A DNA stretch of 64,000 bases from Tetracentron sinense (lineage: Eukaryota > Streptophyta > Magnoliopsida > Trochodendrales > Trochodendraceae). Below are positions 1-64,000 of the stretch, piece after piece. The translations under genes and the position numbers were made by a program. The notes under the pieces were generated by a model. The model was given only the letters and a program-made list of their open reading frames with translations, did no database searches and was not told where the DNA came from. The stretch covers positions 5,319,072-5,383,071 of the forward strand of contig CM026566.1 in the NCBI GenBank assembly GCA_015143295.1, given 5' to 3'. Every line of letters begins with the position of its first letter. Positions within the stretch are counted from its first letter, which is position 1.

Positions 1-477
1 AAATAATTTAAACCTTATGTATTATTCCAATCCTAGATCTAGACCATGCGATAAATTTTCTAGAATTCATAATCAAAATAGACAAGAATTGAAACTGGTA
101 ATCTTATACCTTTCGCTGGAATTTCCCTGTTCCCTTCACGGTGTGATGTTGGGTTTCTCGGCGCTTGAGAGGATGAGAAAAGTCTTCTCTTTTCTCCTTA
201 GGTCTGATTCAATGGGGCTTCTTAATGACGTAAGAGAAAAGAGGGACCCCCCCTTTGCTTTATATACCCTTGGAACCCTACCCATCATAACGGTCGCCAA
301 CCCTGACCATGTTGTTAGCTTTAATAACACTTAAAGAATCCCAGTTCGATCACATCTCTTTAGTGGGACCCATTAACCTTAACATTCTCTATTGATAACA
401 ATACAATCCGAGTTTTGAAAACCTAAAGATTGCGTCGGACCACATGGGCTTTTATTTAATAATAAAAAACTCTAACA
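1..477 (-). repeat. Left LTR of copy 1 (3' LTR on the minus strand, cut by window edge)
   Basis: It ends at TCTAACA and matches 58737-59213 closely, and 4452-4985 less closely. Both left LTRs lack a segment of about 37 bp that both right LTRs carry. It contains an open frame of about 100 codons on the plus strand that recurs in all four LTRs; this lies antisense to the element and is not taken as a gene. Confidence 0.85.
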
Positions 478-1879
478 ATTTCCCACTTGGTCCAAGCAAT
501 CCTTAAATAAAATAAAATGACTCTTCGGATTGAACAACTTTAAAAACATGAGTGGTCACTCTTTTAATTTTGAAAAACATTACTGTCGAGAATTAAGTGT
601 TCTTTAACTGTCACTTTGATTCAAAAGCACCACTAACGGTGATCATAGAAGCATTTAGCATCTACTAGTGTTCATTACTATGATGCAAGCCACTCCATGG
701 TCAAACGGCTAGTAATACTAATGTTTCAGAGCGGTTCTTTATGGTGGCTAAGTATGGTGTGACATGGACTGTACACAACCTTATGTGATCAAAATGTGTA
801 CGTCCAAAAATTGTCCACGCTACATGCATTTAAGCATATGCATGTCATTCCGATACTTTACGGCAACCCCCATGTGAAGTCCATCACCTTGCATCCAAAA
901 TAAAGGCCTCAAACATGGTGCCCAACTATGTTCAGCCCAAGCAACTTGAGAGCTTTGTGCGAGGCTCTCGGGCAAACCTAACATCAATGACATCCGTCAT
1001 GTGAAGTCCATCACTTGATGTCTTTACCTTTTGCACGTGCAGTTCAAATACATAACTATAATCAAATGATGCATCAATTATTTAATTTGCATAACCATAA
1101 TATATCAATATTTGAGAGTGTAAAACAATGACATGTATATCATATAAAAGTTTGGAATACAAAACAATAAACAATACTCCCACTAAATAAAAGAATCAAA
1201 CGATTCTAAAAGGTTCCATAATAGTGACAAGTTCTTAAAAATTTCTGATGGAGAGTTCTTTAGTTAACGGGTTTATAATCCAAACATGTAACAACACATA
1301 ATCTGATGAGGATTTCAAACTATCCTAAAAACAAGTAAAATCAGAGGCTGAATAACTTTTAAACTTCTAGTTCAATATATCTCTTGTAAACCAATATGAA
1401 ATCCTATGAGATAACTCCAAATGTCTAGAAATATGATTTCTTGTAATCTTGATATCCAAATTATAACTTACAAACTTCCCACTGATCTTAACATATATCC
1501 ACTGATTCAAGTAGATTACGACTTTAAGTTTACTATTCAAATTGTCACAAGAGTCACAATTACCTAGAGAAAATCTAATAAAATTAACAAACATACACAA
1601 CAAGAATGACATAAAATATGAGTCCAAGTTAGCTAATAAAGATCATCCACTAATATATTACTACCAACTATCTAAAAACTATGTCTGATGAAGAGTGTAC
1701 TCCCCTCAAGGATAAAACTAAACTGTATCCAATCTAAAATAAATAATATCTCACCTAAACAACGACACAATGAAAATAACATCTAATAGTAAAAACCATA
1801 AACAAAGTCTAATACTAAAAGCAAGTTCCAACAGCCTCTAATACTATTGGTGCAGAGTTCTTCAAAAATCAACAGCTCC

Positions 1880-2833
1880 TCAGCCTTGGTGCTTCGCCGA
1901 TGAATGAACTCCTTTGTTCTTCCTGCACCAATCCTTATAATTGAAACAATCTCTTTTCATGTGACCTTTCCCTTTGCAGAAGAAACACTCAATCTCCTCT
2001 TGTTCCTCAGTATTATCCTTTCCCTGAAATTGATGTCCCAAACTTTGTCCTTGATTATGTCCTAAATTATGACTTGAACTCTGTCCTGAATTTTGTCATT
2101 GCCAGAAATTCTGTGAATTATGCTTCTGAAACCCTTTATTTTTAAAATTCTTCTTACTACCAGAATTCACAGCCAAGTTCGCAGACTCGGCTTTCCCACG
2201 CTTCATGCGCTCTTCCTCACTAACACACACAACAATCAGTTCATGCAGATCCCACTTCCTATCCTATGCACTATAATTAACCTTAAAAGCATAAAATGAT
2301 TAGGAAGTGAAGCTACAGCCAAATGCACCATGAGGTCATCCTCAATGGTCAACTCTAGTTCTCTAAGAGAGATAATCAACTTAGATATCTTTAAGATGTG
2401 CTCCCGAATATTTCCAGCACCATCATACTTCAATGAAATCAGCTGAGTCAAACAACTGTACTGACGAGACCTAACAGACCCCATAAATTACTTCTTGATA
2501 GTCTTAAGAAGAACCTTAGCAGTATCAGCAGCAGGAATACCACCCTTGATGGCTACTTGAACAGAAGCTCTAATGATCATCATAGCCATCCTATTGGCCT
2601 TCTCCCACTTCGAATGCAAGAACTTATCTGAATCTGAAGACTCAGCAGTGGGAGTAACCGGCTTTTCCTCCAGTAGGACAAAGTCGTAATCAAGGCAACT
2701 CAGAACTATATCTAGCTGCATTTTTCAAGAACTATAGTTTGAACCATTCAGAGGCTCAATCCCAGTCAAATGTTTCTAAACTACAGACCCATCCATATCT
2801 GAAAATGTCAATGTTTTACTATGTTATGGTATG
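1880..2833 (-). mobile_element. gag-like region of copy 1
   Basis: Minus-strand frames show a Copia-type gag: a segment with LLEEKPVTPTAESSDSDKF, then a UBN2-like stretch with LKISKLIISLRELELTIEDD, and near 1945-1990 a zinc knuckle CFFCKGKGHMKRDC (C-X2-C-X4-H-X4-C). Gag would form the particle and bind element RNA. The region is broken. The same region in copy 2 lies near 60650-61573. Confidence 0.75.
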
Positions 2834-3584
2834 TTTAACAAATTATTGCACAAATTATAATAATTTACTTTATACATATCCTTGCATGACTTTATTTAAG
2901 CTTTATGATTCTAATCCGGACTTGGGGTTAAGTCGGATAGCTAAAGTGGTTTACTTTGAAATTGTTTACTTCCACTTTACGGGACAGTTGGGCGCGGCGC
3001 ATCATCTAATCACACATTTGGGCAAGAGATTTCGACATACAATTCACCCCCCAATCGGTGACAATAGTCGCGCATAGAACTGATCTATCACGTTTTGGAT
3101 TGATTAGGACACTTCCACACCTTTGGGCAAGAGGGTTATCCTTCTCTCACCGCTACGAACAAATCATTCTGCCCTACTCAGTCTACATGAAGTCCTTAGA
3201 CACCTTTAGACAAGACTAGCTATTCAATGTAGGTGAGTGCAAACTTGCGATCTTAAAGAGATTGAAATCCCTAAATTCGAATAACCATAACCTCCATAGG
3301 ACAGTTACCTTTGGACAAGACAATCTAACCTACTTTGGTTATGACCATACGAACGAACACCTTACAGATAAAACCTAAACCCCACAGGATGATCTAACTT
3401 TAGTTTCTGATATTAATTTTGGGTACAAGTATCAAGTTCTTTATTTATTTAATGTCAAAACCATAAGAAAATGATGTCTATGCACTAAAACAGCTCTTTA
3501 CAGTGCTCAGAAGTCTAAATGGACCTCAAAAACGGAATCAGAACACCCAATAACCTTAGAAATCGTCGGACACTTCCCCTGGAC

Positions 3585-3960
3585 ATGTCCTGGGGACGTG
3601 TCACGCGCACAAGACACCCCTGCGAGTGTCACGCGCAGTGCACGCGCATCTCACGCGCTGGGAGTATGCATCACGTTGGAAAATGTGCTGCACGCGCATG
3701 GATTGCGCTCACGCGCGGTCTGCGTATCACGTGCACGCGGTCTGACGCTGTCATGCGGTCCGGTCTGGGCCCTAGTTCGGTCCGGTTGGTTCAGCCATCG
3801 GTCCGGTTGAACCGGTCCGGTCTAGAGAACGGGTTCGGGTTTTATTTTGGGTTGGGTATATGGATCTGGGTCGGGTCAGACCAACGCATTCGGTTCCGGG
3901 TCAGCTTATTCGGATCGGGCCATGGGTCGAGGTTGACCCTCGTGATTCTATCTTCCTCAC
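3585..3960. other. GC-rich leader segment of copy 1
   Basis: This lies between gag and primer-binding site. It is strikingly GC-rich for the window, with many CACGCGC and TCACGCG words followed by CGGTCCGGTT and CGGGT-rich repeats. It is kept in copy 2 (about 62340-62700). Open frames here look like a by-product of the composition. Confidence 0.6.
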
Positions 3961-4435
3961 CCGAAATTTTTATTTATTTATTATTTCAAAACCCTAACTG
4001 CCGTATACTGTAACCACAAAGGAGGGGGGGCTACCGGCCACCAAACCTACCAACTCTGGTGCCATTCAGTCGGCCTCTCTCCGGCGAGCAAAACCTCATC
4101 ACCGGTGGTCCCTTCCGACGACGGACGGCTGTGGAATTGCCGTCCACCTGAAAACGGTGAACCCCCCCCCCCCCCCCCCTTTTTTTTTTTGATCTTCCTT
4201 AAACCTGAATCACTCGGATCCTTAATACGAAAAAATAAATTCATTCTAATCATCTAATTTACCTTAATCATCATAGATCAATAAAAATTGATCATAAAAA
4301 TCTGAAAATCAATCAAATTCTATTTATTTGATTAACCTTAATTATCAATCATTTAGATCAATAAAAATCCGAAAATAAATTAAATTGAACTCAAATTTTT
4401 GATTATTGAGAAAAATTAATCACAAGGTCAAGCCT

Positions 4436-4450
4436 GAGCTCTGATATCAA
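4436..4450 (-). promoter_or_regulatory. Primer-binding site of copy 1
   Basis: On the minus strand the sequence abutting the LTR reads TTGATATCAGAGCTC, one base from the usual plant initiator-methionine tRNA primer site (TGGTATCAGAGC). It fixes the element's orientation. Copy 2 has the canonical form at about 63176-63189. Confidence 0.8.
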
Positions 4451-4451
4451 T

Positions 4452-4985
4452 TGTTGGGATTTAGAATAATAAACAATTTACAACTTATGTATTATTCCAA
4501 TCCTAGATCTAGACCATGCGAAAAATTTTCTAGAATTCATAAACAAAATAGACAAGGATTGAAACTGGTAATCTCATACCTTTCACTAGAATTTCCCTAT
4601 TCCCTTCATGGTGTGATGCTAGGTTTCTTGGCGCTTGAGAGGATGAGAAGAGTCTTCTCTTTTCTCCTTAGGTCTGATTCAATGGGGCTTCTTAATGACG
4701 TAAGAGAAAAGAGGGACCCCCCCTTTGCTTTATATACCCTTGGAACCCTACCCATCATAAGATCCAAGGACTAAGAGGGATCACACCAAAGATCTAACGG
4801 TCGCCAAACCTGACCATGTTGTTAGCTTTAATAACACTTAAAAGAGTCTCAGTTCGATTACATCTCTTTAGTGGGACCCATTAACCTTAACATTCTCTAT
4901 TGACAGCAATACAATCCGAGTTTTGAAAACCTAAAAATTACGCCGGACCACATGGGTTTTTATTTAATAATGAAAAACTCTAACA
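4452..4985 (-). repeat. Right LTR of copy 1 (5' LTR on the minus strand)
   Basis: Bounded by TGTTGGGATT and TCTAACA on the plus strand, 534 bp. Nearly identical to 63191-63723. The adjacent TACAC is the target duplication, confirmed at both ends of copy 2. Confidence 0.88.
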
Positions 4986-5257
4986 TACACATCACGGCCA
5001 TTTGGGGCCATTATGATTATGGTAATTAGAACACATTCTTATCATTCTTAATTTGGGTTACCTATTTCCTATTCATAAATAAATGAGAGGACTCTTCCCA
5101 TCAGCCAAGTGGAAGAGTTCATTTTCTGATCCACTCATATTTGAAATAAGATGAAGAAATTGCAGGGGGTAGATCAGTAAATAAATATTTCTAATGCTCT
5201 CTCAATTTAACAAAAATTGGTATCTCTGTATTTTTAACTCTCTTATATGCATGGCAG

Positions 5258-5760
5258 ATATTACAAAATTACTAGTGGAAAAGAAGCCAGAACTCATCGA
5301 AGAACAGGATATCTATGGGAGGACTGCTCTTCACTATGCTGCATCCTATGGTTGGCCTGGGGTGGCCATACTTTTATTAGAGGCAGACAGCTCAGTAGCC
5401 TACATCCAAGACAAGGATGGCAGATCAGCTCTTCATTATGCAGCTGAGATGATCATTTGAGGGTACCCAGATGCTGTTGAGCTGGTTAACAATAGAGGTC
5501 AGAATGCTTTTCATGTTTGCATCGGAAAGGCACGTGTAGGGGTGCTCGATTGTCTTATGAGTAAGGTTAGGGATGATGAGGTCTTAAACCAGCAGGACAA
5601 TGAGGGAAACACCCCTTTGCATCTGGCCGTTAAGATAGGCAATCCTAAACTGGTGGAATCTATGTTAGAGAAGGAGGGCAGAGTGGACATTGATACCATG
5701 AACAATGACAACTTCACACCCCTCGACTTGACTTTGCGAAGAGAAGATGCATCAATGGAG
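5258..5760 (+). CDS. Ankyrin exon 2 of gene A (damaged)
   Basis: The acceptor GGCAG precedes ATATTACAAAATTACTAG, giving ITKLLVEKKPELIEEQDIYG, as in the homologous exons of B and D. Later repeats read NQQDNEGNTPLHLAV and DNFTPLDLTL. The frame is interrupted at 5458. The donor is ATGGAG/GTAAAA. This is one exon of the gene A pseudogene, listed because the ankyrin homology is clear on both sides of the stop. Confidence 0.75.
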
Positions 5761-8019: not shown

Positions 8020-8566
8020 GAGATTCAAGTCTATGGGCACCTGCGTGATGCTGGCGCTAAATTCGGTATAGTGGAACCATTTAATGAAAAAGATTGGGAT
8101 CTTGTAAATGCACAAAAGGATCGATGCTGAGGACAATACCTCCGATATGATAAAAGAAATTAACAGCAATCAGATGATAGTGGCAGCTCTCATTCCCACC
8201 GTCACCTTTGCAGCAGCTTTCCAAGTTCCGGGAGGTTACAATAGTAATGATGGCACAGCAACCCTTGCCAAAAAAGCAGCTTTCCAAGTATTTGTGGTAA
8301 CGGATGCCATAGCATGGTCATGCTCCATGACCACTGTATTCCTCTGTTTCATATTCACCCTTACTCGTAACAGTTACATTGACTCCAACATTGATGAAGA
8401 ATTAACCATTATGTTTTTCACAATTCTGATACTCATTGCCATAATAGCAATGTTTGCCGCATTCGTGGCTGGCCTGTACACGGTGTTAACTAATTCCTTG
8501 TGGCTCGCCATTTTTACTTGTTTTATTGTCTCTGGGACTTGTCTTCTTAGCCCTTTTTTTTGTTAA

Positions 8567-15900: not shown

Positions 15901-16028
15901 TGAAAAAGGGGCACTTAGCGTGGGTTGACCGCTTAGGATAGGATCGATCCAAGTGCCAAGCTGCCATAATTTGGTGAGCTCTGGATCCTTCTTGGAAATC
16001 CATGACCATGCATTTTTTAAGGTTGGAC

Positions 16029-23744: not shown

Positions 23745-23949
23745 CCCTCCTGCTGAAAGTGACTCTGTTATATTCCTTGAGCAATTTACAGAAATCGGAA
23801 TTAGCTTTTCCACCCTCAAGTAAAGAACAAAGATAATGTAGAACAACCAAAGATAAAACAAGAGATAATTCGTTCTCGTCTTTGGGAGGAGTGTTAGCCC
23901 TACTTTCGGGCTTTTTCTACTCTCAGCTGTTCGGTAGAGAGTGAACACC
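23745..23949 (+). promoter_or_regulatory. Upstream region of gene B, shortened relative to gene D
   Basis: 23755-23930 parallels 47548-47703 upstream of gene D (TATTCCTTGAGCAATTTACA, AAGAGATAATTC, CGTCTTTGGGAGGAG). In D about 235 bp with a TATA-like ATATATATT then follow before GCTGTTCGGTAGAG. In B the two parts join directly at CTCAGCTGTTCGG, so the core promoter seems lost, perhaps by recombination between TCAG repeats. Confidence 0.6.
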
Positions 23950-24685
23950 ATGGATCCTAGATTGTATGAAGCAGCAAGGGAGGGAAGCGTTGATCTCGTC
24001 AAGAAACTAAAAGAAGAAAATCCCAACCTTCTACTATGAGTCACTCCAATCCTGGAGAACACCATTCTTCACCTCGCCACGAAACTCAGAAACGAGGATT
24101 TGGTTAAGGAAGTATGTGACCAGTGTGAATCACTTCTGGCCATGACAAACTCCAAAGGAGACACTGCATTGCACATTGCTGCAAGGGCGGGCTATCTCTC
24201 TATAGTGCATATCCTGGTCGAGAAATCCATTTGTGGATCAACATCCAGAGATGTCGAAGAAGGAGCTCATATACTGAGGATTAAAAATGAAGAGAAGAAC
24301 ACAGTCTTGCATGAAGCTCTACGATAACGGCCAAGGTGTTGACCGAGAAGGCCCCTGAATTATGGCTTGTTGTTAATGAAGCTAGCGAATCCCCACTTTA
24401 TCTGGCCGTCAAAAGGAGGACTTACAGAAATTGCACGTGAAGTCTTAGAATCTGCTCTGCCATTTGCTCAGGAAGGGCCAAACAAATTGACGGCATTACA
24501 CGCCGCAGTCATTTGGGACGATTACGGTATGATTGCACACATTCTTATCATCTTTCATTTTGGTTATTCATATATGATATGAGAAGAGTCTATAAGGCTT
24601 TTAGTTCCCATCAGCGACTCAGATTGAGAGTAATTAAGAATAAGAATCTTTTTAAACCCCTCTCTCTCTTTTATGTATGTGCAAG

Positions 24686-25245
24686 GTATTGTAAAATTAC
24701 TAGTGGAAAAAAAGGCAGAACTCATCAAAAAAAGGGATATCTATGGAAGAAGTGCTCTTCACTATGCTGCATCCTATGATAGGCCTGCGGAGGCCAGACT
24801 TTTGTTGGTGTCAAACACCGCAGTAGCCTACATCCAAGACAAAGGTGGTAGATCACCTCTGCACTACGCAGCCGGTAACGGTAGCTTTTTGACAGCTATG
24901 GGGATCATTGCATGGTACCCAGATGCTGTTGACCTGGTTGACGAAAGAGGCCAGAATGCTTTCCATTTTTGCGTCGCCAATTATAATCAAGCGAGGCCGT
25001 GGGGTCATAATTTGGTGCTCCGTTGGTTCATGAATACTAAGATTAGGTATGATGAGCTCTTAAACCAGGCGGACAAGGATGGAAACACTCCTTTGCATCT
25101 GGCCGTCGACCACGGCTCTCCTGATTTGGTAAGATTTCTGTTAAAGAAATACAAGGGCAGACTCGACATTGATGCCATGAACACGGCCCTCTGCACACCC
25201 TTGGATTTGGCTCTCCCAGGAAAACATGGTCCACAAGCAAAAGAG
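24686..25245 (+). CDS. Intact ankyrin exon 2 of gene B
   Basis: Open from acceptor GCAAG to donor GAG/GTACTA. It begins GIVKLLVEKKAELIKKRDIY and carries ankyrin repeats GRSALHYAASYDRPAEARLL, GRSPLHYAAGNGSFLTAM, GQNAFHFCVAN, GNTPLHLAVDHGSPDLVRFL and a final LCTPLDLAL. It keeps the segment that gene D has lost. This is the best template here for the ancestral exon. Reading continues past the donor only by chance. Confidence 0.85.
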
Positions 25246-42352: not shown

Positions 42353-42489
42353 TTGCTCATGAAATGTCACACAATGTACATTCAGCAGGAGGAAATAAAA
42401 TATAACCTTAAGTTTGGTATCGGTAGAGAGTGAACACCATGCATCCTAAATTGTACAAAGCTGCAGCAACAATGGAAAGAGTTGTTTTC

Positions 42490-47539: not shown

Positions 47540-47956
47540 CTTCCGAAAGATATTCCTTGAGCAATTTACAAAAATGAGAATTTGCTTTTCCACCCTCCAG
47601 TAAAGAACAAAGATAATGCAGAACAACCAAAGATAAAGCAAGAGATAATTCTTTCTCGTCTTTGGGAGGAGTGCTAGACCTACTCTTGGGTTTTTTCTAT
47701 TCTCAGTCTCAGTCAACCAAATGTCCTAATTTTTTAAAAATATATACTTTAACGTCAAAAAGTACTTTAACAGGTTATTTTTGGGACACATGATAGGTTG
47801 AGGTTGATCTGAATGTACCATACGTTGCTTTATCTTTAATTCTTCACTTGTTAACACGGTAAAGGCCCGTTCTGGTTGATATATATTGCTTATGAAATGT
47901 AACACAACCCACATTCAGTAGGAGGAAAAAAAAAAGCATCAGCTGTTCGGTAGAGA
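47540..47956 (+). promoter_or_regulatory. Upstream region and core promoter of gene D
   Basis: 47548-47703 is shared with gene B. The part nearer the gene has TTAACACGGTAAAGG and ATATATATT (47879-47887), as in gene C. The phrase CAGCTGTTCGGTAGAG lies just before the start in B and D. Probably promoter and 5' leader. Confidence 0.55.
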
Positions 47957-48556
47957 ATGAACACCCTGGATCGTAGATTGTATAAAGCAGCAACATTAGG
48001 AAGCGTTGATCTTGTCAAGGAACTCAGAGAAGAAAATTTCAACCTTCTACTAGGAGTGACTCCAATCCTAGAGAACACTGTCCTTCACCACGCCGCAAAA
48101 CTTGGACAAGAGGATTTGATTAAGGAAGTATGTAAGCAATGTGAATTACTTCTGGCCATGAGAAACTCCAAGGGAGACACTGCGTTGCACATTGCTGCAA
48201 GGGCTGGCCATTTCTCTGTAGTCAAAATCCTGGTGGAGAAATCCAGAGATGTCCAAGGTGGAAGAAAGGAGACAAATAATATACTGATCTGGATTCAAAA
48301 TAAAGGGAAGAACACAGTCTTGCATGAAGCTCTACGATGTCGTCGCTCAGATGTGGTGAAGATGTTGACAGAGAAGGACCCAGAATTATGGTATTTTGTT
48401 AATGAGGCTGGTGAATCCCGACTTTATTTGGCCGTAAGAGGAGGACTTACAGAAATTGCACGTCAAGTCTTACAATCTTCTCACACATGCTCACGGAGGG
48501 CGAAACAGCTTGACGGCATTACACGCCGCAATTATTTGGGAAGATTACGGAAATAG
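47957..48556 (+). CDS. Open ankyrin exon 1 of gene D
   Basis: 199 codons and then TAG. Repeats: NTVLHHAAKLGQEDLIKEVC, GDTALHIAARAGHFSVVKIL, NTVLHEALRCRRSDVVKMLT, ESRLYLAVRGGLTEIARQVL. The last 25 or so residues are in a shifted frame relative to paralogues. It is the most intact exon 1 in the window and is useful for reconstructing the family's N-terminus. Confidence 0.7.
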   Translation: MNTLDRRLYKAATLGSVDLVKELREENFNLLLGVTPILENTVLHHAAKLGQEDLIKEVCKQCELLLAMRNSKGDTALHIAARAGHFSVVKILVEKSRDVQGGRKETNNILIWIQNKGKNTVLHEALRCRRSDVVKMLTEKDPELWYFVNEAGESRLYLAVRGGLTEIARQVLQSSHTCSRRAKQLDGITRRNYLGRLRK

Positions 48557-48900
48557 CACATATTCTTATCATCCTTTGTTCATATATTAGAAGACTCTTC
48601 AAGGATTTTAGTTCCCATCACTGATGCGAAAGAAATCAGTTTCTTAATTACCAACTAGTAAATAAATCTCTATAGTGCTCTCAATTTAACAATGGGGATT
48701 TTGCATATCAGCTGCTAGGTGTATCCTAGTTTGCAAAATATAATGTTATATATAATAGATTTACAAATTAACTCACCATTGTTCTACTGTTTAGACAAAG
48801 AACCTCACTCTCCCACTTCCGTTCAAATGCATTCAAAAATGTTTAAAAGTGACTATAATACCCTTGTGACATCTGGAGGACTATAATACCCTTGTGACAC

Positions 48901-50255: not shown

Positions 50256-50467
50256 GCAGTGCGATTATAATATATCTTAAGAGCATAATAATCATTTTAC
50301 TAACAGTTTTAAAAGCCTAACGAAAGTAGGGGTTTTGGTTGTTTGTCTAACGTGTGATGATTGATGAGTTAATTTGCATAACATTGTATATGCAAACTAA
50401 AGGATAAACTTAACAAAAATAGGGAATCTCTCTTTTTTTGGACCATTCATTCTCTCTTATATGTCAG

Positions 50468-50901
50468 GTATTGCAGAGTTTCTAGTTAAAAAGAAGCCCG
50501 AACTCATCAAAGAAGAGGATAAATTTGGAAGGACTGCTCTTCACTATGCATCGTATGATAAGTATGATAGGCTTGAAGTGGTGAAACTTTTAATAGAGTC
50601 AGACAGCTCAGTAGCCTACATCATAGACAAGGATGGTAGATCAGCTCTTCACTATGCAGCGGGTAATGGCCATGATGACGTAACTAAAGAGATCATTGGA
50701 AGGTACCCAGATGCTGTTGACCTGGTTGATCATTGGAAGGTACCCCGTCTGCATCTGGCCGTCAACCGCGACTCTCCTGATTTGGTGAAATATCTATTAG
50801 ATAAGTACAAGGGCAGAGTAGACATTGATGCCACGAACAAGGCCCACTTCACACCCTTGGACTTGGCCCTTTCAGGAAAACATGATCAACAACGAAAACA
50901 G
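50468..50901 (+). CDS. Open ankyrin exon 2 of gene D (internally shortened)
   Basis: From acceptor ATGTCAG to donor CAG/GTACTA. It begins GIAEFLVKKKPELIKEEDKF; repeats GRTALHYASYDKYDRLEVVK, GRSALHYAAGNGHDDVTKEI, then LVDHWKVPRLHLAVNRDSPD, where two repeats have been fused by an in-frame deletion, and AHFTPLDLALSGKHDQQ. No stop. Confidence 0.8.
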
Positions 50902-52299
50902 GTACTATTTAATTTCATGTATGAGCAAACGGTTAGACCCTAAATTGCATGCACTATGGATCGGCTACATCTGCTGCTGTGAACCCAAAATCGCATCCAC
51001 TACCATCATCATGATGTCATCCCGACACCCATGGGAAAGCATATGTGTTCTTCCCTGTAGGGATCTACCTTGTGACCTGGGTGTTTGATGCTCAGGATCT
51101 CTTGTACAGCTTTTAAATCCGTACATCCAATTTGATCCTAGTCTTCAACCACTCATGGCCACGGGGAAGAACTAAAGGAAGAACATAGACGATTTGCTTC
51201 CCGCATGCATATGTTTGCTGATTAAGTGCATTTAATTTTAATCGGTGTGTCACCTACAACCAATGTTACCTGGTTCGTTGGTTCGCTCGGTTTGAATTCG
51301 GGTTCGTGATTCGCAGTTTGCCACTTTAGAGTGAACACGGTTCGCTAGGGATAGGATGAGATAATTCGTTTCTCGGTTCGCTTATGTTCTTTTGTTTGGT
51401 TCGTTAGCTTGGTTCGTTACTTAAGCATGTAAAACAAATATATGTTTTATTATATATATATATATATATAAACATGTAAATAATATATTACAAATACTTA
51501 TATTTTAACAAAAACCATAAAAAAAAGTCTTTTTATGAGCAGTTTATAAACTCAAAGTATAAATTTAGCGAACCCAAAGAAAAATATTAGTGACTTCAAA
51601 TAAAATTTCGACGAACCAAGACCGTTTCAAAACCACCGTGTGATTTGCTCCATTTCACGAATCAATCTGAACCGAACTACGAACTAGTTTGGGTTCACTC
51701 TAGCATTCAACAAAGTTGGTAATTATTATATGTTTACTGATTAGGCACATTTAATATTAACCGGTGTGTCACCTATGGAAGCAAATTGTATGTGTTCTTC
51801 CCTGTGGCCATGAGTGTTTGATGGCTAGGATCAAATTGACTCGACGGAATTAACATATATATAAGAAATCTTGGCCGTCAAACATCCAGTCCATACGGGA
51901 GAGCACATATGATTTGCTTACTTCACCAACAACACTCAAGTGAAGGCTATAGTTATGCTCCTGAGGTCGCCACATGTCCCTTTTGACACCCCTTAATTGT
52001 GGTTATGAAATACTCACTCCCAGGGTTTACTTGGTTTTTACAAAAAATAATTTTTTTTTATTATTTTTAAATTTTTAAAATTGGGGAAAATGAGAATAAA
52101 AAAAGCCTATAGTCCATCGCTCTTTTTGGGGGGAAAAGGAGAATAACTTGGGGATGGAGCCAAGGAGGCTCCACCCAAAGTAATTGTCCTTCATTGAGTT
52201 TCTCTAATCGAGGGTGTAATGCATGGATATTCACTTATACTGTTTTATTCAAATGAAGTCATCCCCATTTCTTATTCATGTTGACATAAATATGAACAG
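50902..52299 (+). other. Intron 2 of gene D
   Basis: Short compared with gene B. It holds a segment of about 470 bp rich in GGTTCG words (about 51252-51726) between two direct copies of a ~48-bp phrase (TGTTTGCTGATTAAGTGCAT at 51204 and its near copy at 51730), and a half foldback (51960-52080) resembling an arm of 43309-43696. The AAGTAATTGTCC flank before the PGG exon matches gene B's. Confidence 0.6.
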
Positions 52300-52570
52300 G
52301 AGACTCAACTCTGTTGGGACTTTTTTTCTGCTCATGCTATACGCGGTATAGCAAATCCTCTCGGACAGACAACCCAAAAAAAAAATTAAAATCAGATGAT
52401 TGGCCTTTACGTGGTGTTGACTAATTCCTTGTGGCTTGCCATTTTTACTTGTTTTATTGTTTTTGGGATTTGTTCTTCCTCCCTGGTATTCTGTAAAATT
52501 AGTTTGAAATCAGATGATCCGGTGTATGAAGCTTATGTCTTAAAAATATCTCGAAATCAGATGACCCGAA

Positions 52571-53275
52571 TCTGATGCTAATAATGCCTTAAAAATGTAT
52601 CTCGGATGTTTGATTTTAGAAATTTGGTATTCGGTCTTTGGCGAATCTCTTGTGTACGTTCACATGTCCTACATTAGCAAGTTCTAAATTTTAGAAAGTT
52701 GTTTTCAGCAATTGTATTTGTATCTCTTATAATTTTTTTTTGAGATTCTTCCTATTTTGTGTGAACAATCTTAATACAAATCCACAATTGCAAGTTGGTT
52801 TGAATGACTGCTTCATGTCGACCGCTTTGGGTGGCCTCTAAACAATTGGATCTTACGATATCACATAGAAAGTGCATAACACTACACATGAAATTTCAAG
52901 GCTTAGAATTGCCCTGCCGCCGCCTGAACCAGTTATTCTGACCGTACGAACGATGCAATCCGCCAGAGATGAAGGAAGGAGGAGAAGAAGAGGGGATGGA
53001 GAAATAGGAGCGGGAAGAGTCACCTAAAGGAGAGTATGAAATTCTATTCGAATTAAAAAAAAAAAAAAAAAAGTTTCTCCCCTCCAAAATTAGGATCAAC
53101 CCTCCTAAAAATAGAAAAATTATCATGGGCTCAGGTACCCTCTTTAAGTAACACGTGTCACATGCATAGCTTCCCCAAAGCGTGTGAATCATCTATGTAA
53201 ATTTATTACAATATTAGCTTATAATGCTTTACTACTAAGGTCTTCCCCTCATTCTCTAGAATCTCCAAGTAGACT
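52571..53275 (+). other. 3' tail of gene D
   Basis: Matches 15151-15900 almost throughout, ending CTAGAATCTCCAAGTAGACT. Family 3' UTR and flank, as behind A and B. Confidence 0.65.
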
Positions 53276-53389
53276 GATGGATTATATTTCGGTGTTCAGA
53301 AATTATGTAAATAATTTGAATTTATGTTATATTGCTTACAGATACAATTAATATATGTAAAAAAAAAATTTATAAATTTTTTTGAAAAA

Positions 53390-55084: not shown

Positions 55085-55505
55085 TTGGGCATAATGTCCC
55101 TAAAGATTTCATTCTCACAATACCTTTAAGTCAGGTTTCTATACCCAAAATGTCCCTCAATTTTTTTTTTCGTATAGTCAAAATCTCTCAAATATTTTTT
55201 AGTTCTCAACATGCCCCTAAGTCAAATTTCTATACCCAAAATGCTTACCACAAAATTTTTAACTCAAAATGTTCCTTAAGTTTGCCCATATTTCATTTTC
55301 TTCATTTCTAAAATGTCCCTCAAGTTGCATACCCAAAATACCCTCAATTTATTGCTACCCAAAATACCCCTAAAGCTTTTTTTTCTCAAAATATCCATAC
55401 ATAATGTTTCTACACCCAACGTGTCCCTCACATTTTTTTTACCCAAAATGTCCCTCAACTTTCTATACCCAAAATATTCTTGAAATCGTTTTCTTAAATG
55501 CCCCT
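55085..55505. repeat. Degenerate short tandem repeat, paralogue of 34786-35120
   Basis: Same ACCCAAAATGTCCCTCAA core. About 420 bp. Start of the flank shared by genes C and E. Confidence 0.7.
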
Positions 55506-55641
55506 CATTAGGGACCCTTTTTCCAATCTCTCTCCCCCTCCCCCTCTCTCGCGTGCACGTGCAACCGACTAGTATATAAAAAAATGATGTGTTGGTTCAG
55601 TGATAGTATACATTATATAAGGCTACTTTGTGTTGAGATAG

Positions 55642-55801
55642 GATCACAACCAATTGTAATTGAATTCAATTCAATTTTATATATGGCACATGTGGATTGG
55701 ATAAAGGAAAAAGAGCGGAAAATTTAAATTTAATTTTTTTCCGTCTTCCAATTTACATGTGCCACATATGTAATTGAATTCAAGTGCAATTGGTTGTGAT
55801 C
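55642..55801. mobile_element. Foldback MITE, duplicate of 35261-35428
   Basis: GATCACAACCAATTGTAATT and CAATTGGTTGTGATC arms; same interior GGATAAAGGAAAAAGAGCGG. Confidence 0.75.
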
Positions 55802-55904
55802 ATATCTTCTTCGTGTCAGTTCAAAAACTATTCGACAAACTAGGATCCGATGTGGGACGAGTGGAATTGGTCTGGGAAATCGAAACCATCTGTCCCTCAT
55901 CCCA

Positions 55905-56345
55905 ATGGTCAACATGTGTCCCTTTAAACACTCTTTAACTGTGGTTAAAATTCACTAACTCTTAGGATACAACCATATAACCTTGATTAAAAAAAAATTA
56001 ATCATAAGAGGTTAAATTTGTTAATCAGGATTAAAGGGCAATTAAAGGTGGTAAGACCAGACGACTTTGGTCTCACAAGGGCTTGACCAAATCCGTTCTC
56101 GGGGATTGGATTTGTTCTAACACTCCCAAACCAAAACTGACCCACTCATAGAGCCTCTTTAATTGCAGTTTTAATCCTGAGTTCAAATTTCTAGCTTCTA
56201 TGGTTAAAAATTTTTAAATATTTTTTTCTAAAAGCAAGATTACATGGTTGAATCCTAAAGGTTAGTAAATCTTAACTACAGCTAAAAAAAATATTAATAG
56301 GTACACATAGCGACCTGTGGGATGAGGGCCAGCCCAAATCCATTC
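55905..56345. mobile_element. Compound foldback MITE region, duplicate of 35480-35950
   Basis: GTGTCCCTTTAAACACTC...TTAACTGTGGTTAA foldback, then TTTGGTCTCACAAGGGC...AGCCCAAATCCATTCCC. Confidence 0.6.
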
Positions 56346-56378
56346 CCTGATTTGTGGTACCATAAAGAGGCAAAAGAT

Positions 56379-56960
56379 TTCTCTGGCGATGCCAGAAAAA
56401 GGTCTCGGGCTTCCACACATTAGGAGACATCTGGTGATAAGAAGAGGAGAAGTCATTTCATTTTCTCCCCATGATTTTGACTTCTCCCTACTTGATATCT
56501 CTCCTTTTTCTCACACACTTTTAGCCACATGTCGCATTATGTGTGGAGAAGTCAAAATCATGGCCCCATGATTTTGACTTCTCCCTCCACATGTCACCTA
56601 ATGTGTGGAAGCCCAAGGCCATGGTTTCTGGCAGCGCCAGAGACAATCCTATGCCTAAAGAGAGGCACCATACCTGAAAATGGCATCGGATTCTCTAGCA
56701 CTTGCCAAAAAAATGGTCTTGGGCAATCATACATTGTGCGCCATGTGGCATAAAACAGGGGAGAAATCATTTTATTTTCTCCCTTGATTTTTGATTTCTC
56801 CCCAATTGATATCTCTTCCCCTTTTTCTCACACTTTATCATCATGTGTCACAATGTGAAGAAGTCAAACATCAAAGGGGACAATGATTTGACTTCTCCCA
56901 CCACATGGCACACAATGTGTGGTTGCCCGAGACCATTTTCTGGAATGTGGAGAGAGAATC
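56379..56960. mobile_element. Two adjacent foldback MITEs, duplicates of 36104-36632
   Basis: First about 56379-56652 (TCTCTGGCGATGCCAGAAAA and TTTCTGGCAGCGCCAGAGA). Second about 56690-56960. Both hold inverted GGAGAAGTCAAAATCATGG words. Confidence 0.7.
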
Positions 56961-57238
56961 CGAGGCCCCTAAAGATGCGTGGTTTATGTTTATGGACTTG
57001 ACTCGTCGACGTGAACCATGCTCTAAAGTCTATTCAATGATCCAGTTGTCTTCTTTACATGTGGTAAGATCTTTTACACTTCTCAATGCGATCCAGCTAT
57101 CTTCTTTACCCAGCTATCTTCTTTACGTGTGTTAAGATCTTTTACACTTCCCTTAGAACAACAAGATAAATTCTTAACCAATAACCAATTTTGAAAGACC
57201 TAAGGATAACCAATTGGGTCTTATTTCTTTTTCTATAA

Positions 57239-57474
57239 GGGTGTGGTGGGGGTAAACTAAAGTAAAAGAAAATGCCTCATTTAACTTTCTCCCACTATTA
57301 CACTGTTTTGGTGATTTTGGTGGAATGAGAAAAATGATAAAGAGAAAGAATATGTAGGATACTGTTGAGAAAAGCTTGCATGGGAGAGTGTGTCTTTCTT
57401 GCATTCTGAACACCCTAAGGAAAGGATAGGGTTTCACTTTACTTTAACCCACTTTCCCTCAAACGAACACATCC
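57239..57474. mobile_element. Tourist-like MITE with TAA target duplication
   Basis: Ends GGGTGTGGTGGGGGTAAACT and AACGAACACATCC, flanked by TAA on both sides (57236-57238, 57475-57477). The gene C paralogous flank near 36980-36995 reads TCTATAAAGGGCTAGAC, an empty site. Confidence 0.8.
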
Positions 57475-57505
57475 TAAGGAGCTAGACAAGTCCCTCTCTC
57501 TTCTC

Positions 57506-57869
57506 TATAAATCCCATTTGGTCCCTGCCTTCACTCACCCATTCTCATCCATCCCTTTTTCCCTAAGCAGATCGTCACCACCATGGCAAGAGAAAGAGAG
57601 CTCTCCTCTCTCACACAATCTTTCATGCCACCATTGTAGCACGAAGGAGGAAGAGATTTCCTATCTCTCTGCTTCTCTTCCTTTCTTCTTTACTTCTTCC
57701 TGTTCTCCCAGCAGCAACTTCTCTATTTCGACAAACATGTACAGCCATGGTCCTCCATCATCTACTCACATAGCTACTAGAAGAGGCTGCCACTTTCAGA
57801 CTCCTTGGCTGCCTCTTCCTATAGCCAACCCACCATTTCGTCTGCCAGGCCTCCTCCCGCACGGTAGTA
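57506..57869 (+). other. Exon-like upstream segment of gene E
   Basis: TATAAATCCC (57506) and then ATGGCAAGAGAAAGAGAG (57583) and, in another frame, a longer open stretch 57518-57874 ending NPPFRLPGLLPHGSR. It closes at a donor-like GTAGTAG/GTAAATC, and an acceptor-like CCATCAG lies just before the ankyrin start. It parallels the segment upstream of gene C that is split by the solo LTR. Frames differ between the copies, so a non-coding leader exon is as likely as a coding one. I do not recognise a protein family. Confidence 0.45.
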
Positions 57870-58090
57870 GGTAAATCCTTTTTCTATTTTTTTAGTTAGT
57901 TAACCTATTCAGATTAATATTATTGCCGTTGATATATATATATATGTATATATTTTGCTCGTGAAAGGTAAAACGACACACAATCAGCAGGAGGAGATTA
58001 AAAAAAAAAAATACCCATCAGTTGTTCGGCTGATAATGAACACCATGGATCCTAGATTGTAGAAAGCTGCAGCAACATTCGGAAGAGTTA

Positions 58091-58190
58091 ATCACATCAA
58101 GGAATGCGCTGATCGCATCAAGGAACGCCCAGATCTCATCAAGAAACACGCTGATCTCATTAAGGAATGCACTGATCTCATCAAGCAAGT
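58091..58190 (+). repeat. 21-bp in-frame repeat array in gene E exon 1
   Basis: Five units such as GCTGATCTCATTAAGGAATGC, coding ADRIKER, PDLIKKH, ADLIKEC, TDLIKQV heptads. Regular 21-bp period, frame kept. Expanded relative to genes B and D. Confidence 0.85.
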
Positions 58191-58704
58191 CAAAGAAGAA
58201 AATCCCAACCTTCTACTAGGAGTGACTCCAATGGGGAACACTGTCTTTCACCTTGCAGCGAAAGTCAGAGACAGGGATTTGGTTGAGGAAGTATATGATG
58301 AACAATGTGAATCACTTCTGGCCATGACAAACTCCAAGGGAGACACTGCATTGCACATTGCTATAAGGTCTGGGCATCTTCGTATAGTCAATTTCCTGGT
58401 GGAGAAATCCATTTCTGCATCAACATCCATAGACGTCGAACAAGGAGGAAACCAGACTAATTATATACTTGGGATTCAAAATCATAGGAACAACACAGTC
58501 TTGCATGAGGCTCTACAATACCGTCACGAAGATGTGGCCAAGGTGTTGACGGAGAAGGCCCCTGAATTATGGTGTGTTGTTAATGAGGCTGGTGAATCCC
58601 CACTTTATCTTGCTGCAAAAGGAGGCCTTAAAAAATTGTCCGTCAAGTAGTCATAGAATCTTCTCACCTGTAGGCTCACGGCGGGCCAAACGGCTTGACG
58701 GCAT

Positions 58705-58709
58705 TACAC
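58705..58709. repeat. Target-site duplication, left
   Basis: TACAC directly before the LTR, repeated at 63724-63728 after the other LTR. Confidence 0.88.
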
Positions 58710-59213
58710 TGTTGGGATTCAGAATAATAAACAATTTAAACTTTATGTATTATTCAAATCCTAGATCTAGACCATGCGATAAATTTTCTAGAATTCATAA
58801 TCCAAATAGACAAGGATTGAAACTGGTAATCCCATATCTTTCGCTGGAATTTTCTTGTTCCCTTCACGGTGTGATGCTGGGTTTCTCGGTGCTTGAGAGG
58901 ATGAGAAGAGTCTTCTCTTTTCTCCTTAGGTCTGATTCAATGGGACTTCTTAATGACGTAAGAGAAAAGAGGGACCCCCCCCCCCCACTTTGCTTTATTT
59001 GCCCTTGGAACCCTATCCATCATAACGGTCGCCAACCCTGACCATGTTGTTAGCTTTAATAACAATTAAAGAGTCCCAGTTCGATCACATCTCTTTAGTG
59101 GGATCTATTAACCTTAACATTCTCTATTGACAGTAATACAATCCGAGTTTTGAAAACCTAAAGATTACGTCGGACCACATGAGTTTTTATTTAATAATAA
59201 AAAAACTCAAACA
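58710..59213 (-). repeat. Left LTR of copy 2
   Basis: 504 bp, TGTTGGGATTC...AAACA. Closest to 1-477. Confidence 0.85.
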
Positions 59214-62200
59214 ATTTCCCACTTGGTCCAAGCAATTCTTAAGTGAAATAAAATGACTCTTCAGATTGAACAACTTTAAAAACATGAGTGGCCACTCTTT
59301 TAATTTTGGAAAACATTGTTGTCGAGAATTAAGTGTTCTTTAACTGTCACTTTGATTCAAAAGCACCACTAACGGTGATCATGGAAGCATTTAGCATCTA
59401 CTAGTGTTCATTACTATGATGCAAGCCACTCCATGGTCAAACAGCTAGTAATACTAATGTTTCAGAGCGGTTCTTTATGGTGGCTAAGTATGGTGTGATA
59501 TGGACTGTACACAACCTTATGTTATCAAAATGTGTATGTCCAAAATTTGTCCACGCTACATGCATTTAAGCATATGCATGTCATTCCGATACTTTACGGC
59601 AACCCCCATGTGAAGTCCATCACCTTGTATCCAAAATTAAGGCCCCAAACATGATGCCCAACCATGTTCAGCCAAAGCAACTTGAGAGCTTTGTGCGAGG
59701 CTCTCGGGCAAACCTAACATCAATGACATCCGTCATGTGAAGTCCATCACTTGATGTCTTTACCTTTTGCACGTGCAGTTCAAATACATAACTATAATCA
59801 AATGATGCATCAATTATTTAATTTGCATAACCATAACATATCGATATCTGAGAGTGTAAAACAATGACATGTATATCATATAAAAGTTTAGAATATAAAA
59901 CAATAAACAATAATCCCACTAAATAAAAAAATCAAACGATTCTAAAAGGTTCCATAATAGTGACAAGTTCTTTAACATTTTTGGTGGAGAGTTCTTTAGT
60001 TAACGGGTTTATAATCCAAACATGTAACAACACATAATCTGATGAGGATTTCAAACTATCCTGAAAACAAGTCAAATCAGAGTCTGAATAACTTTTAAAC
60101 TTCTAGTTCAATATATCTCTTGTAAACCAATATGAAATCCTATGAGATAACTCCAAATGTCTAGAAATATGATTTCTGGTAATCTTGATATCCAAATTAT
60201 AACTTACAAACTTCCCACTGATCTTAACATATATCCACTGATTCAAGTAGATTACTACTATAAGTTTACTATTCAAATTGTCACAAGAGTCACAATTACC
60301 TAGAGAAAATCTAATAAAATTAACAAACATACACAACAAGAATGACATAAAATATGAGTCCAAGTTAGCTAATAAAGATCATCCACTAATATATTACTAC
60401 CAACTGTCTAAAAAATATGTCTGATGAAGAGTGTACTTCCCTCAAGGATAAAACTAAATTGTATCCAATCCAAAATAAATAATATCTCGCCTAAACAATG
60501 GCACAATGAAAATAACATCTAATAGTAAAAATCATAAACAAAGTCTAATACTAAAAGCAAGTTCCAACAGCCTCTAATACTGTTGGTGCAGAGTTCTTCA
60601 AAAATCAACAGTTCCTCAGCCTTGGCGCTTCACCGATGAATGAACTCCTTTGTTCTTCCTGCATCAATCCTTATATTTGAAACAATCTCTTTTCATGTGA
60701 CATTTCCCCTTGCAGAAGAAACACTCAATCTCCTTTGGTTCCTCAGTATTATCCTTTCCCTGAAATTGATGTCCCGAACTTTGTCCTTGATTATGTCCTG
60801 AATTCTGTCCTAAATTATGACTTGAACTCTGTCCTTGACTCTGTCCTGAATTTTGTCATTGCCAGAAATTCTGTGAATTATGCTTCTGAAACCCTTTATT
60901 TTTAAAATTCTTCTTACTACCAAAATTCACAGCCAAGTTCGTAGACTCTGCTTTTCCCACGCTTCATGCGCTCTTCCTCACTAACATACACAACTATCAG
61001 TTCATGCAGATCCCCCTTCCTATCTTGTGCACTATAATTAACTTTAAAAGCATCAAATGATTGAGGAAGGGAAGTTACAGCCAAATGCACCATGAGGTCG
61101 TCCTCAATGGTCAACTCCAGCTCTCTAAGAGAGATAATCAACTTAGATATCTTCAAGATGTGCTCCTGAACATTTCCAGCACCATTATACTTCAATGAAA
61201 TCAGCTGAGTCAAACAACTGTACTGACGAGACCAAACAGACCTCATAAATTGCTTCTTGATAGTCTTAAGAAGAACCTTAGCAGTATCACCAGCAGGAAT
61301 ACCACCCCTGATGACTTCTTGAACAGAAGCTCTAATGATCATCATAACCATCCTATTGGCCTTCTCTCACTTCGAATGCTAGAACTTATCTGAATCTGAA
61401 GACTCGGCAGTGGGAGTAACAGGCTTTTCCTCCAGTAGGACAAAGTCGTAATCAAGGTAACCCAGAACTATATCTAGCTGCATTTTCCAAGAACTATAGT
61501 TTGAACCATTCAGAGGCTCAATCCCAGTCAAATGTTTCTGAACTACAGACCCATCCATATATGAAAATGTCAATGTTTTACTATGTTATGGTATGTCTAA
61601 CAAATTATTGCACAAATTATAATAATTTACTTTATACATATCCTTGCATGACTTTATTTAAGCTTTATTATTCTAATCCGGATTTGGGGTTAAGCCGGAT
61701 AACTAAAGTGGTTTACTTTAAAATTGCTTACTTCCACTTTACGGGACAGGTGGGCGCATCATCTAATCACACCTTTGGGTAAGAGATTTCAACATGCAAT
61801 TCACCCCCCAATTGGCGACAACAGTCGCACACAGAACTGATCTATCACGTTTTGGATTGATTAGGACACTTCCACACCTTTGGGCAAGAGAGTTATCTTT
61901 CTCCCACCGCTACACACAAATCATTTTGCCCTATTCGGTCTACATGAAGTCCCTATACACCTTTAGGCAAGACTAGCTATTCAATGAAGGTGAGTGCAAA
62001 CTCGCGATCTTAAAGAGACTGAAATCCCTAAATTCGAATAACCATAACCTCCATAGGACGGTCACCTTTAGGCAAGACAATCTAACCTACTTTGGTTATG
62101 ACCATTTGAACGAACGCCTTACAGATCAAACCTAAACCCCATAGGATGATCTAACTTTAGTTTCTGATATTAATTTTGGGTACAAGTATCAAGTTCTTTA

Positions 62201-63190
62201 TTTATTTAATGTCAAAACCATAAGAAAATGATGTCTATGCACTAAAACAACTCTTTACAGTGCTCAGAAGTCTAAATGGACCCCAAAAACGGAATCAGAA
62301 CACCCAAAAACCTTAGAAATGGTTGGACACCTCCCCTAGACATGTCCTGGGGACGTGTCACGCGCACAAGACACCCCTGCGAGTGTCACACGCAGCTCAC
62401 GCGTTGGGAGTGCGCATCACGCTCGGGAAATGTGCTGTATGTGCACGAATTGCGGTCATGCACGGTCTATGTATACGCACTCGCGGTCTGATGCCGTCAC
62501 GCGGTCCGGTCTGGGCCCTAGTTCGGTCCGGTTGGTTCAGCCATCGGTCCAGTTGAACTGGTCCGGTCTAGAGAACGGGTTCGGGTTTTATTTGGGCCGG
62601 GTATATGGATCCAGGTCGGGTCGGACCAACGCATTCGGTTCCGGGTCAGCTTATTCGGATCGGGCCATGGGTCGGGGTTAACCCTCGTGATTCTATCTTC
62701 CTCACCCGAAATTTTTTATTTATTTATTTATTATTTCAAAACCCTAACCACCGCATACTGTAACCACCAAGGGGGGGGGGGGGGGCTACCGGCCACCAAA
62801 CCTGCCAACTCCGGTGCCGTTTGGTTGGCCTCCCTCCGGTGAGCAAAATTTCACCGCCGGTGGTCCCTTCCGGCGACGGACGGCAGCGGAATCGCCGTTC
62901 ACCTGAAAATGGTGAAAGCCCCCTTTTTTTTATCTTCCTTAAACCTGAATCACTCGGATCCTTAATACGAAAAAATAAATTCATTCTAATCATCTAATTT
63001 ACCTTAATCATCATAGATCAATAAAAATTGATCATAAAAATCCGAAAATCAATCAAATTCTATTTATTTGATTAACCTTAATTATCAATCATTTAGATCA
63101 ATAAAAATCCGAAAATAAATTAAATTGAACTCAAATTTTGATTATTGAGAAAAATTAATCACAAGGTCAAGCCTGAGCTCTGATACCAAT

Positions 63191-63723
63191 TGTTGGGATT
63201 CAGAATAATAAACAATTTAAACCTTATGTATTATTCCAATCCTAGATCTAGACCATGCGAAAAATTTTCTAGAATTCATAAACAAAATAGACAAGGATTG
63301 AAACTGGTAATCTCATACCTTTCACTAGAATTTCCCTATTCCCTTCATGGTGTGATGCTAGGTTTCTTGGCGCTTGAGAGGATGAGAAGAGTCTTCTCTT
63401 TTCTCCTTAGGTCTGATTCAATGGGGCTTCTTAATGACGTAAGAGAAAAGAGGGACCCCCCCTTTGCTTTATATACCCTTGGAACCCTACCCATCATAAG
63501 ATCCAAGGACTAAGAGGGATCACACCAAAGATCTAACGGTCGCCAAACCTGACCATGTTGTTAGCTTTAATAACACTTAAAGAGTCTCAGTTCGATTACA
63601 TCTCTTTAGTGGGACCCATTAACCTTAACATTCTCTATTGACAGCAATACAATCCGAGTTTTGAAAACCTAAAAATTACGCCGGACCACATGGGTTTTTA
63701 TTTAATAATGAAAAACTCTAACA
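63191..63723 (-). repeat. Right LTR of copy 2
   Basis: 533 bp, TGTTGGGATTC...TCTAACA. Closest to 4452-4985, including the ~37-bp segment absent from both left LTRs. Confidence 0.88.
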
Positions 63724-63728
63724 TACAC
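63724..63728. repeat. Target-site duplication, right
   Basis: TACAC, identical to 58705-58709, followed by the resumed ankyrin exon. Confidence 0.88.
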
Positions 63729-64000
63729 ATCACGGCCATTTGGGGCCATTATGATTATGGTAATTAGAACACATTCTTATCATTCTTAATTTGGGTTACC
63801 TATTTCCTATTCATAAATAAATGAGAGGACTCTTCCCATCAGCCAAGTGGAAGAGTTCATTTTCTGATCCACTCATATTTGAAATAAGATGAAGAAATTG
63901 CAGGGGGGGTAGATCAGTAAATAAATATTTCCAATGCTCTCTCAATTTAACAAAAATTGGTATCTCTCTGTTTTTAACTCTCTTATATGCATGGCAGATA

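What the first reader, a model, noticed from the sequence alone, without database searches (positions are those of the whole stretch)
1..64000. A ~58.7-kb tandem duplication dated by a shared retrotransposon insertion
Bases 1-5260 and 58738-64000 align at a nearly constant offset of about 58,738. Both contain the same gag-only element in the same ankyrin exon with the same TACAC target. Left LTRs resemble each other more than they resemble the right LTRs, and the right LTRs share a ~37-bp segment the left ones lack. The element therefore inserted once, its LTRs diverged, and the block was duplicated afterwards. Relative order: insertion, then duplication. An assembly artefact (two haplotypes joined) would look similar.
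Basis: partly seen in the sequence, partly recalled or inferred. Interest (0 to 1): 0.75.

Follow-up and report, generated by a model that had tools for sequence, protein, structure and literature searches.

The report
Duplicated retrotransposon with homogenised right end
Two far-apart copies of the same defective jumping element sit at the same spot of related plant-type ankyrin genes, but one end is nearly identical while the rest has drifted apart, so the simple dating argument does not hold; the parts are ordinary and an assembly error is not excluded.

Summary
The repeat is real: 1-5260 and 58729-64000 align at 94.1%. Both hold a copia-type, gag-only LTR element (B: 5.0 kb) in one ankyrin exon; 2 of 3 paralogues in the window show the empty TACAC site, so one shared insertion is well supported. 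The LTR argument for the order of events is not. Left of A4192/B62932 the copies differ at 230 of 4158 sites (5.5%), right of it at 8 of 1067 (0.75%; none of 2000 permutations as extreme). Best reading: shared insertion, duplication in an ACD6-like gene array, then recent gene conversion over the right LTR and flank. Duplication boundaries lie outside the window; joined haplotypes remain possible. Ordinary biology, with a caution for LTR dating.

The parts
1..4985 (-). Element copy A (LTR element, primer site and gag on the minus strand), left LTR cut by the window start
   Evidence: BLAST and LTR alignment; primer-site-like motif with 1 mismatch at 4438-4449 minus
1..477 (-). AL: left LTR of copy A (3' LTR in element orientation), lacks the first 19 bp
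4452..4985 (-). AR: right LTR of copy A (5' LTR), holds the 37-bp segment; 530 of 533 identical to BR
4192..5260 (.). Low-divergence stretch in A (8 of 1067 sites differ from B, plus three 1-2 bp indels); core 4484-5191 has 0 substitutions in 707 aligned columns
   Evidence: changepoint, permutation and spacing tests; indels
4986..4990 (.). TACAC target duplication, right side of A
5239..5736 (+). Second ankyrin exon of unit 1, downstream of A; carries an in-frame stop
   Evidence: tblastn and frames, Ank_2 in its second part
8108..8563 (+). PGG-domain exon of unit 1
   Evidence: PF13962 E 1.9e-24
23938..25230 (+). Unit 2 ankyrin exons; uninterrupted insertion site
47954..48576 (+). Unit 4 first ankyrin exon; uninterrupted insertion site
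58036..58709 (+). Unit 5 ankyrin exon interrupted by copy B; its frame is also broken upstream of the insertion
58705..58709 (.). TACAC target duplication, left side of B
58710..63723 (-). Element copy B, both LTRs complete
   Evidence: TGGTATCAGAGC exact at 63177-63188 minus
58710..59213 (-). BL: left LTR of copy B (3' LTR), lacks the 37-bp segment
60917..61366 (-). gag open frame of copy B (149 aa); a neighbouring piece with weak gag-type matches lies in another frame, so gag is broken
   Evidence: PF14223 E 5.1e-16; 61382-61585: DUF4219 E 0.0029, Retrotran_gag_3 E 0.033, both below cut-off; stops
63191..63723 (-). BR: right LTR of copy B (5' LTR), holds the 37-bp segment
62932..64000 (.). 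Low-divergence stretch in B, partner of 4192-5260
63724..63728 (.). TACAC target duplication, right side of B

Best explanation
A non-autonomous, gag-only copia-type LTR element inserted once into the first ankyrin exon of an ACD6-like ankyrin/PGG gene (5-bp TACAC target duplication). That locus was later duplicated inside a tandem array of such genes, giving copies now 58.7 kb apart. The copies drifted to about 5.5% difference. Recently, non-allelic gene conversion between them copied a stretch of about 0.7-1.1 kb (core A4484-5191) over the right LTR and about 200 bp of adjoining exon and intron, making that end nearly identical again. Shown: the shared right-hand insertion junction, the target duplication in B, the empty paralogous site, the sharp fall in divergence. 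Inferred: that A and B are true paralogues and not alleles, and that the homogenising step was conversion and not a crossover or an assembly effect.
For: Same insertion point, B target duplication and empty site in the 24-kb and 48-kb paralogues. Changepoint at A4192 (2-lnL interval 4164-4232), likelihood gain 31.2 against a maximum of 12.7 in 2000 permutations. Three or fewer differences between right LTRs at the left-LTR rate has probability 7e-11, or 1e-6 at the lower 95% bound of that rate. The contrast survives removal of CpG and CHG sites: 23 of 428 against 2 of 495, p 1.6e-6. The 8 substitutions in the low stretch leave a gap of about 708 bp, with substitutions on both sides (spacing p 0.0015; 0 of 707 against 3 of 69), as expected of a tract with two ends. 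The window holds parts of five ankyrin-gene units with first-exon pairs at 80-85% identity, so paralogues abound. In print, plant LTR conversion tracts are most often 100-1000 bp (PMC7251063, passages seen) and 1-1.5 kb at maize bz (PMC2686159, passages seen).
Against: The right end of the tract rests on 3 substitutions in 69 bp at the very edge of the window, tested at a boundary chosen after looking; the core itself holds a 1-bp and a 2-bp indel (A4840, A5164). PMC7251063 reports conversion between different elements as much rarer than within one. No reads, second assembly or relative was available, so alleles cannot be told from paralogues. Neither duplication boundary is seen.
Confidence: 0.5

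Rival explanations
1. Assembly artefact: A and B are the two alleles of one locus, placed one after the other. The jump in identity is an ancestral recombination point between haplotypes.
For: Patchwork identity (4.8%, 10.8% and 0.75% difference) is also what two haplotypes can show. False duplication of alleles, part of it on the same scaffold, is documented in vertebrate assemblies (PMC9516828, passages seen). The copies' outer boundaries are not in the window.
Against: 5.5% over 4.2 kb is high for alleles (general expectation, not tested). No N in the window, although PMC9516828 lists gaps between duplicated pairs on one scaffold as typical of false duplications. The array contains other paralogues at 80-85%.
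Confidence: 0.27
2. Second unequal crossover inside the element: older duplicates with the element already present recombined near A4192/B62932, so that everything to the right of the junction is recently duplicated and everything to the left is older.
For: A single sharp changepoint inside a direct repeat is what such a crossover leaves. Unequal crossover in plant arrays is well described (PMC2686159 passages), and a tandem duplication with a chimeric gene is reported at ACD6 itself (PMC4091793 passages).
Against: Differences reappear in the last 69 bp of the window (0 of 707, then 3 of 69; spacing p 0.0015).
Confidence: 0.15
3. One reading: insertion, LTR divergence, then one duplication with uniform drift.
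For: Shared insertion site; shared 37-bp difference and 14 sites where left LTRs agree against right LTRs, with no site joining AL and AR against BL and BR.
Against: Right LTRs differ at 3 of 533 where about 31 are expected at the left-LTR rate (p 7e-11). The 14 sites are equally explained as changes on one homogenised right-LTR lineage. AL is as close to AR as to BL.
Confidence: 0.04
4. A's left part belongs to an independent insertion of the same family, joined to B's right end by recombination between two elements.
For: AL, BL and the right LTRs are about equidistant, as in a burst of independent insertions; A's left flank is outside the window.
Against: B is a clean single insertion with matching target duplications in a continuous exon, and A's right flank is in register with B's beyond the homogenised core, so A should sit at the same site unless its whole right side was copied in. 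The 37-bp gap is shared by AL and BL.
Confidence: 0.04

Closest known systems
[quoted passage not shown]
   Same: LTRs, primer site, target duplication, a gag domain and no recognised pol; copy B is about 5.0 kb, against a median of 4,837 bp and quartiles of 3,608-8,054 bp for TR-GAG in PlantLTRdb (PMC10025401 passages)
   Different: gag is broken in both copies, so these are decayed copies; no autonomous partner could be sought
Gene conversion in plant LTRs (PMC7251063; abstract, outline and passages seen)
   Same: Homogenised stretch in or near the published 100-1000 bp range; it upsets LTR age estimates, as that paper warns
   Different: Here it would be between the same LTR of two duplicated copies and run into flanking gene DNA; that paper finds intra-element conversion much more frequent than conversion between elements
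Tandem duplication and chimerism at the Arabidopsis ACD6 locus (PMC4091793 passages seen)
   Same: Ankyrin genes of a related type, with tandem duplication, a pseudogene and a chimeric copy
   Different: Unidentified plant here, 58.7 kb spacing, retrotransposon involved; the label ACD6-like is recalled and rests here only on ankyrin plus PGG domains
Maize P1-wr array (PMC2686159 passages seen)
   Same: Tandem array shaped by unequal crossover, conversion and LTR elements
   Different: Different gene family; its repeats differ by few SNPs, whereas units here are 80-85% identical in the first exon

Membership tests
TR-GAG non-autonomous LTR element | Two LTRs with TG...CA ends | tested here: met
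   B complete; A's left LTR lacks 19 bp by truncation
TR-GAG non-autonomous LTR element | Target site duplication | tested here: met
   TACAC on both sides of B, right side of A
TR-GAG non-autonomous LTR element | Primer binding site next to the 5' LTR | tested here: met
   TGGTATCAGAGC exact in B, 1 mismatch in A; its meaning as a tRNA-Met type site is recalled
TR-GAG non-autonomous LTR element | gag domain present | tested here: met
   PF14223 E 5.1e-16 in B
TR-GAG non-autonomous LTR element | No protease, integrase, RT or RNase H | tested here: met
   None in 14 of 14 minus-strand and 7 of 26 plus-strand ORFs of at least 40 aa overlapping B's internal region; copy A's ORFs not scanned
TR-GAG non-autonomous LTR element | Mobilised in trans by an autonomous relative | not testable with these tools
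   no plant genome collection at hand
True tandem segmental duplication | Two copies in direct orientation on one molecule | tested here: met
   on the sequence as given
True tandem segmental duplication | Copy boundaries seen and the block between them duplicated | not testable with these tools
   both copies cut by the window ends; no genome held
True tandem segmental duplication | Uniform divergence along the copies (simple single-event model) | tested here: not met
   5.5% left, 0.75% right of A4192
True tandem segmental duplication | Full read depth over both copies | not testable with these tools
   no reads
Interlocus gene conversion tract | Sharp local rise in identity | tested here: met
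Interlocus gene conversion tract | Divergence returns on the far side of the tract | tested here: inconclusive
   3 of 69 against 0 of 707, at the window edge
ACD6-like ankyrin-transmembrane gene array | Ankyrin repeats and PGG domain in repeated units | tested here: met
   3 of 5 units show a PGG match, one of these partial
ACD6-like ankyrin-transmembrane gene array | Immune role | not testable with these tools
   no expression or genetic data

The most novel reading that the evidence does not exclude
An LTR of a duplicated, dead retrotransposon acts as a homology handle for recent or continuing exchange between immune-type ankyrin genes nearly 60 kb apart, carrying exon and intron sequence between paralogues, so that dead elements help to shuffle a defence-gene array.
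Probability: 0.12. Interest if true: 0.45.

Novelty: new member of a known kind. Interest (0 to 1): 0.22.

Why it matters
It is a compact example of how non-allelic exchange, or an assembly join, can mislead LTR-based dating: four LTRs that seem to give an order of events carry only three independent sequences. If the copies are paralogues, it shows recent exchange between members of a plant-type ankyrin-gene array far apart; if alleles, it is a false duplication that would inflate a gene count.

Tried and rejected
The search of the window's own genome failed: none is held, so boundaries, depth and further family members could not be followed. The searchable collections hold viral, prokaryotic, plasmid and metagenome sequence; no scan of them was run. 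CpG or CHG methylation hot spots as the cause of uneven identity were tested and rejected for the LTR contrast (23 of 428 against 2 of 495); they explain part of the 10.8% block at A3658-4191 (6.1% after removal). A second, older exchange as the cause of that block was considered and left open. Solo LTRs or other copies in the window: in the self-BLAST at E 1e-10, rows of 80 bp or more, no LTR match beyond the four LTRs. tRNA genes: none (ARAGORN); Rfam: no match at gathering scores. A calendar age was not given: the plant is unidentified and its rate unknown. Six paper searches were used for context; they were not aimed at this locus or species, and no claim of absence from print is made.

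Data handling: in the LTR patterns the BL 3' end was misaligned by MAFFT; I replaced its 21 BL-private sites by 18.
Full report
OBSERVATION. Window bases 1-5260 align with 58729-64000 in direct orientation at 94.06%. Both copies contain an LTR element. LTRs are AL 1-477 (19 bp cut off by the window), AR 4452-4985, BL 58710-59213 and BR 63191-63723. Both aligned stretches end where the window ends, so neither boundary of the duplicated region is visible, and the ~53 kb between the copies is not shown to be duplicated.

ANATOMY. The element lies on the minus strand: the primer-site-like TGGTATCAGAGC adjoins the right LTR (exact at 63177-63188, one mismatch at 4438-4449). Copy B holds a copia-type gag piece (PF14223, E 5.1e-16) and, in another frame, a piece with weak gag-type matches below cut-off (61382-61585). 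No pol domain was found in 14 of 14 minus-strand and 7 of 26 plus-strand open frames of at least 40 aa overlapping B's internal region; 19 plus-strand frames and copy A were not scanned. gag is broken in both copies: each of the three minus-strand frames has at least 8 stops in A and at least 13 in B across the gag stretch. The anatomy fits the plant TR-GAG class (PMC10025401 passages).

HOST LOCUS. The window holds an array of ankyrin/PGG genes on the plus strand. First-exon matches lie at 23938-24527, 42575-43015, 47954-48553 and 58036-58641; second-exon matches at 5239-5736, 24649-25230, 43789-43992 and 50434-50883; PGG matches at 8108-8563, 31875-32468 and a partial one near 52291-52545. 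First-exon pairs are 80.1-85.3% identical (6 pairs), second-exon pairs 63.7-79.3% (6 pairs). Ankyrin plus PGG is the make-up of plant ACD6-like proteins (recalled), so the source is very probably a plant; the species was not identified. B's exon is also broken in frame upstream of the insertion, and A's downstream exon has an in-frame stop, so both loci look like pseudogenes.

INSERTION SITE. Joining B's flanks gives GGCATTACAC|ATCACGG; the paralogues at 24 kb and 48 kb read GGCATTACACGCCGC without interruption, while the third one compared (42.7-43.3 kb) loses similarity before the site. TACAC flanks B on both sides and A on the right. A's right flank matches B's in register. One insertion inherited by both copies is therefore well supported. 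A's left flank is outside the window.

DIVERGENCE IS NOT UNIFORM. 238 of 5225 aligned sites differ. The best single changepoint is at A4192/B62932, inside the element about 260 bp from the right LTR: 230 of 4158 sites differ to the left, 8 of 1067 to the right (likelihood gain 31.2; largest of 2000 permutations 12.7). Segmentation gives 4.78% (A1-3657), 10.83% (3658-4191) and 0.75% (4192-5260). Left LTRs differ at 28 of 477, right LTRs at 3 of 533 (Fisher p 4e-7). The LTRs are the same kind of sequence, so composition hardly explains it, and the contrast survives removal of CpG and CHG sites (23 of 428 against 2 of 495, p 1.6e-6).

WHAT THE LTRS CAN SAY. Site patterns over AL, BL, AR, BR are: 14 sites left against right, 10 private to AL, 21 private to BL (18 after correcting a misaligned end), 2 private to AR, and none joining AL with AR against BL with BR. 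Because AR and BR are nearly one sequence, the 14 sites may all be changes on a single right-LTR lineage later shared by conversion. Branches of 10, 18 and about 15 fit a star (p 0.32), and the divergence of left from right LTR before the split is estimated at 0.2% (-1.6 to 2.1%). The 37-bp segment remains the one feature suggesting that the LTRs already differed when the locus was duplicated; in AR it lies between short direct repeats (TAA; read from the sequence printed), as a deletion from the left LTR would leave.

MECHANISM. In the low stretch the 8 substitutions lie at A4303-4483 (5) and 5192-5230 (3), leaving about 708 bp without one (spacing p 0.0015); there are also 1-bp indels at A4396 and A4840 and a 2-bp indel at A5164. 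A tract with two ends suggests gene conversion of about 0.7-1.1 kb rather than a crossover, in keeping with published tract lengths for plant LTRs (most often 100-1000 bp, PMC7251063) and maize bz (1-1.5 kb, PMC2686159). The right end of the tract rests on three substitutions at the window edge and was chosen after seeing the data. PMC7251063 also finds conversion between different elements much rarer than within one, which counts against this reading. The conversion would be recent: 0 of 707 gives an upper 95% bound of 0.42%.

RIVALS. Joined haplotypes remain open: alleles may also show patchwork identity, and false duplications on one scaffold are documented in vertebrate assemblies (PMC9516828 passages). 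The window has no N, and 5.5% is high for alleles, but neither point is decisive. An unequal crossover inside the element would explain the changepoint but not the return of differences at the edge. Independent insertions are unlikely given B's clean site and the shared 37-bp gap.

VERDICT. The repeat and the shared insertion are real; the order 'LTRs diverged, then duplicated' and the size and tandem nature of the duplication are not shown. The likely story is ordinary: a duplicated gene array carrying a dead element, with recent homogenisation of one end, or an assembly join. Its value is as a caution for LTR dating.

Noticed in passing
45173-47276 minus: Another copia-type element fragment with gag, Pol_BBD and gag_pre-integrase domains and an exact primer-site-like TGGTATCAGAGC at 47161-47172.
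   Followed up: partly
34775-43014 and 55161-58610: Largely colinear blocks at 72-89% identity upstream of array units 3 and 5, an older duplication within the array.
   Followed up: partly
21719-22789: Tandem array of about 6 copies of a 179-bp unit.
   Followed up: no
39145-40192: Tandem arrays with 118-bp and 70-71-bp periods.
   Followed up: no
15148-15903 and 52556-53277: 86% identical stretches; the second lies just downstream of a partial PGG match of unit 4, the first may be a further gene-end remnant.
   Followed up: no
43309-43696: Inverted self-match at 85% identity over its whole length, possibly a foldback or MITE-like element.
   Followed up: no
34285-34296 plus: Exact TGGTATCAGAGC on the plus strand, perhaps the start of a further LTR element.
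   Followed up: no
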